Program-made: the position numbers and the translations under genes | The notes under the pieces: generated by a model | Database searches by the model: none | What the model was told of the DNA's origin: nothing | Seen by the model: only the letters and a program-made list of their open reading frames with translations | From: Gammaproteobacteria bacterium RBG_16_51_14 | Lineage (GTDB): Bacteria; Pseudomonadota; Gammaproteobacteria; Eutrophobiales; Eutrophobiaceae | Assembly: GCA_001802375.1 (NCBI GenBank) | Contig: MGXK01000028.1 | Span: 611-36,302, forward strand | Length of the DNA stretch: 35,692 nt | Reading direction: 5' to 3' | Shown: piece after piece, positions 14,755 to 16,355 of the stretch | Layout of the letters: each line of letters starts with the position of its first letter | Numbering within the stretch: the first letter of the stretch is position 1

Positions 14755-14840
<86 letters not shown>

Positions 14841-14923
14841 TATATGTTTTGTTCATGATGATGGAAGCTGCCTTGTGGCACCTTAGATGTGCCGTTCCAT
14901 TAAAACACACTGACTTTCCTGAA

Positions 14924-14952
14924 TAAAAACGAAAAACCGGCAACTATGCCGG
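14924..14952 (-). terminator. Intrinsic terminator upstream of tRNA-Leu
   Basis: On the minus strand CCGGCA-TAGT-TGCCGG (stem 6 bp, 14937-14952) is followed directly by TTTTTCGTTTTT, a clean rho-independent terminator. It would stop transcription arriving from the nucleotidyltransferase module before tRNA-Leu and tig. Confidence 0.75.
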
Positions 14953-15049
14953 GGATAACGTTCGACAGCCTGGACTGTGGGTAGTATATAAGATTTATGC
15001 TTTCAAGGGATCAATGGGGATATTCTGTTTTTTCGAAATAGCCCGCGCA

Positions 15050-15076
15050 GTTGGGCTGAATGAAATGAAGCCCAAC
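15050..15076. repeat. Hairpin repeat GTTGGGCT...AGCCCAAC
   Basis: A perfect 8-bp inverted repeat, GTTGGGCT and AGCCCAAC, with an 11-base loop. Hairpins of this type, in which TTGGGCT pairs with AGCCCAA, are familiar to me as dispersed intergenic elements in many proteobacteria. This window has one copy. Confidence 0.55.
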
Positions 15077-15084
15077 ATCTAAGG

Positions 15085-15160
15085 CTCACCACGGAGTGCA
15101 CGGAGGGGGACAAGGAAAAGAACCTTGAATGCATCAGGAAACACCTCCGTGCTTAATAAT
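15085..15160. repeat. Imperfect palindromic repeat, copy 1
   Basis: Begins CTCACCACGGAGTGCACGGAGG, continues through AAGGAAAAGAACCTTGAAT, and ends CTCCGTGCTTAATAAT. The ends are inverted (CACGGAG against CTCCGTG). The first 46 bases are nearly identical to copy 2 at 16040 and similar to copy 3 at 16174. The copies bracket the nucleotidyltransferase module. Confidence 0.8.
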
Positions 15161-15286
15161 AAAAGCAGGATGTGGATTAAGGCGCATAGTGCTGAATCCA
15201 CCGCATACCGGTGGATACACGCCCCTTGATTCGTTATGCAGACATGTCCAGGCAGGGGTTTTATGTTCGGTGGGGAAAGGGCGTGT

Positions 15287-15487
15287 TCAGCGAGACGCGC
15301 TATCATCAATCTTCCAGATATGCACCACTTTCCCACCTTCCCGTGATACGGGAGCTGCCATCTTCTGGAGTTGCACAACAATTTTCACTTTTTCTGAAAT
15401 AGACAGATGTGCCAGCTTGTACCGCCGTGCCTTTTTTGCGGCAAGCAACTTGAGTATCTCGGGTTTTATGTTGTCCATAGCATCCAT
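15287..15487 (-). CDS. Small protein partnered with nucleotidyltransferase (putative antitoxin-like partner)
   Basis: A 66-residue basic protein: MDAMDNIKPEILKLLAAKKA, then RRYKLAHLSISEKVKIVVQL and a C-terminal KVVHIWKIDD. The start lies inside the upstream nucleotidyltransferase gene, with a 22-base overlap, so the two are probably translated together. From memory, short proteins with the pattern RR-x-LA-x-L-(S/P)-x-x-EK-(I/V)-x-x-V-x-x-(L/M)-Q recur beside this type of nucleotidyltransferase, which supports a real two-gene unit. I do not recognise a named domain. By analogy with other nucleotidyltransferase pairs it may be the partner in a toxin-antitoxin module; this is inference. Confidence 0.65.
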   Translation of the reverse strand: MDAMDNIKPEILKLLAAKKARRYKLAHLSISEKVKIVVQLQKMAAPVSREGGKVVHIWKIDDSASR

Positions 15488-15963
15488 TTCTCTGTGAGTT
15501 CATATCTTTCAAGCAATTCGGTCAGATACACAATATCCATGTCTGCCTCTTCGATTAGCAAACGAACACGATCTTTGTCTTTCGCGCGGCCGGTCTGTAC
15601 GCAGATCGCAACGAGGTGCTCGACCCGAAGCACACGCGTTGACACATCCTCATACGGTTTTTCCACAGCCTCAGCCAGGGCTTCTTCCAGCAATGCGTTA
15701 TACGCCGGCAAAAACTGGACCGGAACGCCTTCGATGAGGACGCACTCTCCTTCTTCCTGATACCCGCGCAACCGCAAAGTTTCATAGAGTGGAGCGAGCG
15801 TTAATAAGCCACCGGAGGTTGACGGTAAAAGGATGAAAACATCCAAATCATACGTGAGTTGTGGTTCGGCATAGAACAATGCCCCCATCGCTCCGCCGAT
15901 AGCGTAACGGCTCAGTACGCCTGTGTGTTCAAGTTCGTTCAGGATGTGAATAGTTCGTTTCAT
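15466..15963 (-). CDS. AbiEii-like nucleotidyltransferase, putative toxin-antitoxin component
   Basis: A 165-residue protein with a minimal nucleotidyltransferase fold. YAIGGAMGALFYAEP (20-34) supplies the Gly-Gly helix start, and TYDLDVFILL (37-46) supplies the Asp-x-Asp metal-binding pair. Later segments VPVQFLPAYNALLEEALAEA and VLRVEHLVAICVQTGRAKDKDR resemble the helical half of AbiEii/DUF6036-type proteins. Such proteins transfer a nucleotide to RNA or protein targets, or have lost activity; the substrate here is unknown. The ATG at 15963 has no strong ribosome site. It is the first gene of a two-gene module whose base composition and flanking repeats differ from the neighbouring core genes. 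Solo or antitoxin roles are also possible. Confidence 0.75.
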   Translation of the reverse strand: MKRTIHILNELEHTGVLSRYAIGGAMGALFYAEPQLTYDLDVFILLPSTSGGLLTLAPLYETLRLRGYQEEGECVLIEGVPVQFLPAYNALLEEALAEAVEKPYEDVSTRVLRVEHLVAICVQTGRAKDKDRVRLLIEEADMDIVYLTELLERYELTEKWMLWTT

Positions 15964-16039
15964 CGCTGGAAATGTAGCATTCTTGCAGCGCTAACGAAAG
16001 TCAGTGGCTTGGTGCATAACCAACTTACCTGGCCACATA

Positions 16040-16125
16040 CTCACCACGGAGTGCACGGAGGAAAACCAGGAAAAGAACCTTGAATGGGTTAAGACCCCCG
16101 TTCTCTGTGATCTCCGTGGTTAATA
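16040..16125. repeat. Imperfect palindromic repeat, copy 2 (most complete)
   Basis: Begins CTCACCACGGAGTGCACGGAGG and ends CTCCGTGGTTAATAA. The terminal words ACCACGGAG and CTCCGTGGT are perfect inverted repeats about 80 bases apart, with AAAAGAACCTTGAAT inside. The size and ends suggest a small non-autonomous palindromic element. Confidence 0.8.
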
Positions 16126-16173
16126 ACACATTCGAGGTCTTTCATTGACACATTGTCAGACCAACCTACCCTG

Positions 16174-16233
16174 TTCACCACGGAGTACACGTAGGAACAC
16201 CAGGAAAATACCTTGAATACATCAGGGAAACCT
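16174..16233. repeat. Imperfect palindromic repeat, copy 3 (3' end degraded)
   Basis: Begins TTCACCACGGAGTACACGTAGG and continues with CCAGGAAAATACCTTGAATA, then CATCAGGGAAACC as in copy 1. The right inverted end seen in copies 1 and 2 is missing, so this copy is diverged or truncated. Confidence 0.65.
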
Positions 16234-16284
16234 TCGCAAATCAAGGAGGGTCAATGAACTTGAAATGGTCATGATTTGTCATTG

Positions 16285-16343
16285 GTCAGTTGTCATTCGT
16301 CCATTGACCACTGACCACTGACCAGTGACGAATGACTACTGAC
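16285..16343. repeat. Long hairpin downstream of ptsI
   Basis: GTCAGT-T-GTCATTCGTC (16285-16301) pairs with GACGAATGAC-T-ACTGAC (16327-16343): 16 paired bases with one T-T mismatch and a 25-base loop made of GACCACT tandem words. It starts 12 bases beyond the ptsI stop on the minus strand. There is no T-tract, so it may stabilise the 3' end of the operon mRNA or be a dispersed repeat instead of a terminator. Confidence 0.7.
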
Positions 16344-16355
16344 TCGAATGATGGA

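What the first reader, a model, noticed from the sequence alone, without database searches (positions are those of the whole stretch)
15085..16125. Two-gene nucleotidyltransferase module bracketed by palindromic repeats
A 165-residue AbiEii-like nucleotidyltransferase and an overlapping 66-residue basic protein sit alone between tRNA-Leu and ptsI, with repeat copy 1 on one side and copies 2 and 3 on the other. The gene overlap implies co-translation. The GG and DLD elements indicate a real nucleotidyltransferase fold. A mobile or selfish toxin-antitoxin-like unit fits, and the repeats may mark how it arrived. The function of this pair is, to my knowledge, not established.
Basis: partly seen in the sequence, partly recalled or inferred. 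Interest (0 to 1): 0.6.

Follow-up and report, generated by a model that had tools for sequence, protein, structure and literature searches.

The report
Nucleotidyltransferase toxin-antitoxin-like gene pair
Two overlapping genes form a widely traded cassette that looks like a poison-and-antidote pair; it is a distant cousin of a known tuberculosis tRNA-modifying toxin pair, is often built into DNA-restriction (anti-virus) operons, and has no name in the family databases searched.

Summary
The two genes are real: a 165-aa nucleotidyltransferase (NTase, 15466-15963 -) and a 66-aa basic partner (15287-15487 -), overlapping by 22 nt between tRNA-Leu and ptsI. Relatives of both occur together in at least 13 phyla. 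Directly downstream of the NTase a partner is found in 46 of 48 loci by HMM and in one more by eye; the last is cut by a contig end. All 19 full-length loci in a sampled phylum also carry one, two of them with the order reversed. The predicted NTase fold is closest to MenT1, a tRNA-modifying toxin whose antitoxin is also a ~68-aa helical protein. MenT motif-I residues (Thr, Asp) are invariant, but motifs II-IV differ. NTases are often broken or deleted beside intact partners, never the reverse, favouring NTase = toxin and partner = antitoxin. The only recurring neighbourhood is Type I restriction: in 8 of 48 loci the pair lies in or beside such an operon, mostly between hsdR and hsdS. The palindromic repeats are a dispersed genomic repeat, absent from the other module loci, and this tRNA-Leu/ptsI junction is a rearrangement specific to this genome. 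So the pair is supported as a horizontally spread TA-like unit; repeats as its carrier are not. Toxicity and target are untested.

The parts
15466..15963 (-). NTase gene, 165 aa, predicted toxin (MenT1-like fold)
   Evidence: ORF; 48 homologous loci in genome contigs; AF2 pLDDT 92.2, Foldseek top five PDB hits all MenT1, best E 2.6e-8
15287..15487 (-). partner gene, 66 aa, basic two-helix protein, predicted antitoxin
   Evidence: ORF; partner HMM hit next to the NTase in 46 of 48 loci; AF2 helices 3-26 and 30-50
15466..15487 (-). 22-nt overlap of the two reading frames; translational coupling inferred
   Evidence: coordinates; ATGA 4-nt overlaps in most homologues
15892..15897 (-). codons of the GG motif (G23-G24)
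   Evidence: alignment A1
15841..15855 (-). codons of T37-Y-D39-L-D41; T37, D39 and D41 invariant, aligned to MenT1 T39, D41 and the next Asp
   Evidence: MenT1 residues from PMC10435456 and PMC11375011
15577..15588 (-). codons of R126-A-K128-D129, conserved motif (QTGRAKD) where MenT has its motif III/IV region
15085..15160 (+). dispersed imperfect-palindrome repeat, copy 1 (not judged part of the module)
16040..16122 (+). dispersed imperfect-palindrome repeat, copy 2 (not judged part of the module)
16174..16220 (+). decayed copy 3 of the same repeat (not judged part of the module)

Best explanation
A two-gene, horizontally spread, protein-protein toxin-antitoxin-like module. The NTase (MenT1-like fold) is the toxin; when free it would transfer nucleotides to an essential target, by analogy with MenT the tRNA acceptor end. 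The small basic two-helix partner, translated from the overlapping gene, binds the NTase and blocks or inactivates its active site; by analogy with MenA1 this may include driving autophosphorylation of the invariant Thr37. Shown here: obligate pairing, co-inheritance, purifying selection, MenT1-like predicted fold, conserved Thr/Asp motif, one-way decay, recurrent placement with Type I restriction genes. Inferred: toxicity, polarity, binding, target, and the autophosphorylation step. In this genome it is an immigrant lodged at a repeat-rich rearrangement junction.
For: Pairing: partner directly downstream in 46/48 loci by HMM, L028 by eye, L026 cut by the contig end. In a sampled phylum all 19 full-length NTases have a partner: 17 downstream (L151 by eye) and 2 upstream, L153 and L155. 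Co-inheritance: NTase and partner distances correlate, Mantel r 0.81, no permutation above 0.30, n = 41. Selection: in the least saturated pairs dN/dS is about 0.07-0.27 for the NTase and 0.17-0.47 for the partner. Fold: the profile's best PDB hit is MenT1, E 0.0033; Foldseek E 2.6e-8 to 1.5e-6 for 8an5, 8an4 and 8rr5, with the next fold, ANT(2'')-Ia, at 5.7e-5. T37/D39 align with MenT1 T39/D41 (PMC11375011). MenA1 is likewise a 68-aa helical antitoxin (PMC10435456). Polarity: the NTase is broken or deleted beside an intact partner in L042, L045, L047, L048, L163 and L164; four partners have no NTase next to them, L166, L176, L178 and L185; no intact NTase lacks a partner. Mobility: 2/398 genomes of its own phylum have it against 23/289 of another phylum; one plasmid and one viral contig with phage structural genes. 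Defence link: the pair is coupled by ATGA overlaps from hsdR onwards in L017, L021, L022 and L041 (Pfam and PADLOC).
Against: No toxicity data. In the HMM alignment the MenT catalytic Lys137 and Asp152 are not conserved here, and the usual third carboxylate is Gln83, so the chemistry may differ or be lost. Most NTases of the family are acidic, unlike the electropositive cavity described for MenT1 (PMC10435456). The partner matches no known antitoxin by sequence or fold. The gene order is mostly toxin-first, unlike MenA1-MenT1. The decay asymmetry is modest: by gene length alone, 10 of 10 losses would fall on the NTase with probability about 0.035, and some breaks may be assembly errors.
Confidence: 0.62

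Rival explanations
1. Reverse polarity, as in MntA/HepT: the NTase is the antitoxin that modifies and silences a toxic small partner.
For: NTase antitoxins exist (MNT-HEPN, own knowledge). The partner is small, helical and basic.
Against: The partner has no positionally conserved R-X4-6-H HEPN motif and is half the usual HEPN size (own knowledge). Partners persist intact where the NTase is broken or gone, which a free toxin should not allow.
Confidence: 0.1
2. A defence module rather than an addiction module: the pair is an accessory of Type I restriction operons that fires when restriction is inhibited, comparable to the PrrC anticodon nuclease inside EcoprrI (own knowledge). This is compatible with the best explanation and concerns its role.
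For: 8 of 48 loci lie in or beside Type I operons in several phyla, with ATGA coupling to hsdR and hsdS next downstream; hsdS is the most frequent neighbour family. L145 also has hsdS downstream, and the orphan partner L166 sits directly before an hsdS-like ORF.
Against: Most loci, the window included, have no restriction genes nearby. Cassettes can settle in restriction loci simply because those loci are mobile.
Confidence: 0.22
3. The NTase is a non-toxic small-molecule or protein-modifying enzyme (ANT/Lnu-like) with a stabilising small subunit.
For: The next PDB neighbours are ANT(2'')-Ia and, further down, LnuA. Catalytic motifs differ from MenT.
Against: Obligate small partner, patchy horizontal spread, one-way decay and restriction linkage are not expected of a metabolic or resistance enzyme. 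No ANT profile scored.
Confidence: 0.13
4. A repeat-bracketed mobile unit: the ACCACGGAG palindromes carried the module in.
For: Copies 1 and 2 flank the module as 91% identical direct repeats.
Against: About 15-20 copies at unrelated genomic sites. Of the 48 module loci, four have isolated hits to a variant 9-mer and none has the repeat flanking the module. The junction is a genome-specific rearrangement.
Confidence: 0.04

Closest known systems
MenAT1 (Rv0078A/Rv0078B) of Mycobacterium tuberculosis
   Same: NTase fold (best Foldseek and best profile hit), Thr/Asp motif-I residues, a partner of about 66-68 aa that is helical, an adjacent gene pair.
   Different: About 18% identity. MenT Lys137 and Asp152 and the third carboxylate are not conserved. 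Partner unrelated by sequence and fold search, and downstream rather than upstream in nearly all loci. Repeatedly found in Type I restriction operons.
AbiE (AbiEi/AbiEii, DUF1814)
   Same: NTase of the same superfamily in a two-gene TA setting, with a phage-defence link.
   Different: The AbiEii Pfam model does not hit this family, although it does find other genes in the same genome. AbiEi is a larger two-domain antitoxin.
DUF2204 (PF09970)
   Same: 16 of 30 members match it at E<=0.1, best E 1.3e-7.
   Different: The window protein is below the gathering cut-off (18.3 against 20.3 bits) and only the N-terminal third aligns. DUF2204 has no assigned function or partner.
MNT-HEPN (MntA/HepT)
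   Same: Minimal NTase next to a small helical protein.
   Different: The partner is not HEPN, and the decay pattern points to the NTase as the toxin.

Membership tests
MenT/AbiEii (DUF1814) NTase toxins | NTase fold closest to MenT/AbiEii | tested here: met
   Foldseek top five = MenT1, E 2.6e-8 to 1.5e-6
MenT/AbiEii (DUF1814) NTase toxins | Match to the AbiEii/DUF1814 profile | tested here: not met
   No AbiEii hit at E<=1 for the window protein or among the families listed for the 30 members
MenT/AbiEii (DUF1814) NTase toxins | Motif I Thr/Ser and Asp (MenT1 T39, D41) | tested here: met
   T37, D39, D41 invariant
MenT/AbiEii (DUF1814) NTase toxins | Catalytic Lys137 and Asp152 (motifs III/IV) | tested here: not met
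   The HMM alignment puts small or hydrophobic residues and Arg there; not checked by structural superposition
MenT/AbiEii (DUF1814) NTase toxins | NTP transfer to tRNA 3' ends | not testable with these tools
   Needs biochemistry
MenAT1-type TA system | Short helical antitoxin beside the NTase | tested here: met
   66 aa, two helices, obligate neighbour
MenAT1-type TA system | Antitoxin homologous to MenA1 | tested here: inconclusive
   No MenA1 hit by profile or fold, but the protein is short and helical
Type II toxin-antitoxin systems | One gene toxic, the other neutralising it by binding | not testable with these tools
   Only indirect: one-way decay
MNT-HEPN | HEPN partner with conserved R-X4-6-H | tested here: not met
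   Only 8 of 33 partners hold such a string, at unrelated positions; no HEPN Pfam hit
Repeat-flanked mobile element (MITE-like) | Same repeats flank the module elsewhere | tested here: not met
   Absent around the module in the other loci

The most novel reading that the evidence does not exclude
An undescribed NTase toxin family with a non-MenT active site (Thr-x-Asp-x-Asp, Gln in place of the third carboxylate, QTGRxKD motif), held by a two-helix peptide antitoxin, that acts as a built-in back-up of Type I restriction operons between hsdR and hsdS and is also traded as a free cassette.
Probability: 0.2. Interest if true: 0.75.

Novelty: new variant of a known kind. Interest (0 to 1): 0.5.

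Why it matters
If right, it is a widespread TA family (at least 13 phyla) that the Pfam, NCBIfam and PADLOC searches run here did not name. Its NTase keeps the MenT phosphoacceptor Thr but not the other MenT catalytic residues, so it would test how general antitoxin-induced NTase autophosphorylation is. Its repeated, translationally coupled place between hsdR and hsdS makes a restriction-linked toxin directly testable.

Tried and rejected
Synteny with ptsI and tig searches: no empty site, because the junction is private to this genome. Repeats as transposon ends: rejected. HEPN partner: rejected. Partner fold search: nothing below E 5. Phage collection: no match. Rfam around the module: only the tRNA. 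Promoter scan: nothing above chance. A conserved aromatic C-terminal tail of the partner: present in about half the members only, dropped. 'NTase without partner' in L153 and L155 was an artefact of looking downstream only; both have the partner upstream. Literature searches found no paper naming this pair; no bioRxiv preprints or subscription papers were held.

Full report
Observation. Both reading frames exist as described and overlap by 22 nt on the minus strand between tRNA-Leu and ptsI. Three copies of a 47-nt repeat flank them, one on the tRNA-Leu side and two on the ptsI side. The NTase has no NCBIfam match and only a sub-threshold Pfam match to DUF2204; the partner has no credible match. 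No PADLOC model hits the NTase. The NTase is single-copy in the genome.

The pair is real and conserved. A scan of genome contigs gave 48 loci encoding NTase relatives, 41-69% identical, from many phyla. Partner HMM hits lie directly downstream in 46 of 48; L028 has a clear divergent partner by eye and L026 ends at the contig edge. Most pairs share an ATGA overlap. In an even sample of 289 genomes of another phylum (that of G469, the genome holding L020, a Limisphaerales bin), 23 had the NTase. All 19 full-length ones newly fetched from it have a partner, 17 downstream (L151 by eye) and two (L153, L155) upstream, i.e. with reversed order. NTase and partner distances correlate (Mantel r 0.81). 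Both evolve under constraint, the partner faster.

Spread. Only 3 of 58 genomes in the relatives search, the window's own included and one a weak partial match, carry the NTase, and 2 of 398 in the phylum, own included. The nearest relative, L002 (69%), carries it downstream of dnaG- and rpoD-like ORFs (my reading of the ORFs), not beside tig or ptsI. A quick tree mixes phyla, although most deep branches are weakly supported. One plasmid of Methylovirgula and one viral contig with phage structural genes (genes read by eye) carry both genes; no phage record does.

Fold and active site. The NTase model (pLDDT 92) matches MenT1 best in the PDB. MenT1 is a tRNA nucleotidyltransferase toxin held by MenA1, a 68-aa helical protein that sequesters it and induces phosphorylation of T39 (PMC10435456, PMC11375011). 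T37, D39 and D41 here are invariant and align with MenT1 T39, D41 and the next Asp. The positions aligned with K137 and D152 are not conserved as Lys and Asp, and the third carboxylate is Gln (Q83); instead the motif R126-x-K128-D129 is nearly invariant. So this is a MenT-like fold with a different catalytic set, and I do not file it as a MenT member. The partner is predicted as a two-helix hairpin with no PDB relative.

Polarity. Six loci have a stopped, frameshifted or deleted NTase beside an intact partner: L042, L045, L047, L048, L163 and L164. L046 has a damaged N-terminus that may be a chimera and is not counted. Four partners stand without an NTase, two of them apparently fused to an N-terminal NTase stub: L166, L176, L178, L185. 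No intact NTase lacks a partner. By gene length alone 10 of 10 has probability about 0.035 (0.714 to the tenth power, my estimate). This favours NTase = toxin.

Restriction link. In L009, L010, L017, L021, L022, L041, L042 and L046 the pair lies in or beside a Type I restriction operon. hsdR ends in GCATGA, where the ATG starts the NTase, in L017, L021, L022 and L041, and hsdS follows downstream in seven of the eight. hsdS is the most frequent neighbour family by PADLOC and Pfam; other neighbour families are seen one to three times each. L145 also has hsdS downstream. The window's own module has no such neighbour.

Repeats and junction. The ACCACGGAG element occurs about 15-20 times in the genome, often as a hairpin, and does not flank the module in any other genome examined. 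In relatives the tRNA-Leu-tig pair is kept in all 29 loci examined, while ptsI is followed by a different gene, apparently an MgtE-like transporter (my reading of the ORF), in 26 of 29. Thus the tRNA-Leu/ptsI junction is a private breakpoint filled with repeats and one immigrant cassette. The module's base composition does not stand out.

Verdict. The finding is a real gene pair, best read as a new variant of the NTase toxin-antitoxin kind, with a possible role as restriction-operon accessory. The repeats are incidental. Toxicity, target and mechanism remain inferred.

Noticed in passing
window 15050-15076: Hairpin GTTGGGCTGAATGAAATGAAGCCCAAC next to repeat copy 1; the same element adjoins another ACCACGGAG copy on contig C123 (L088, L105), so two repeat families travel or accumulate together.
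   Followed up: partly
window 16285-16343: A further imperfect inverted repeat (GTCAGTTGTCATTCGTC / GACGAATGACTACTGAC) in the same junction, embedded in short TGACCACTGACC-like repeats.
   Followed up: no
window 14840-16355: The tRNA-Leu/ptsI junction is specific to this genome; relatives follow ptsI with an MgtE-like ORF.
   Followed up: yes
L051 1479-2230: A more distant NTase in G018 (same family as the window's genome) is followed by a different small helical-looking ORF (MNDTAPEIARQVHQRYMEMDGQQRLLIGMEMFETARKIAISSF...), possibly a parallel NTase/small-partner pair.
   Followed up: no
L017 2603-4315: In a restriction operon carrying the module, an AAA_15/AAA_21 (OLD-like) ATPase gene sits between hsdS and hsdM.
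   Followed up: no
L019 552-4317: ORFs resembling dndC, dndD and dndE (by eye) lie shortly upstream of the module, another defence-type neighbourhood.
   Followed up: no
G000 C124:3816-4379 and C32:128-568 (L108, L109): The same genome has two true AbiEii-family genes, over the Pfam cut-off, distinct from this NTase.
   Followed up: no
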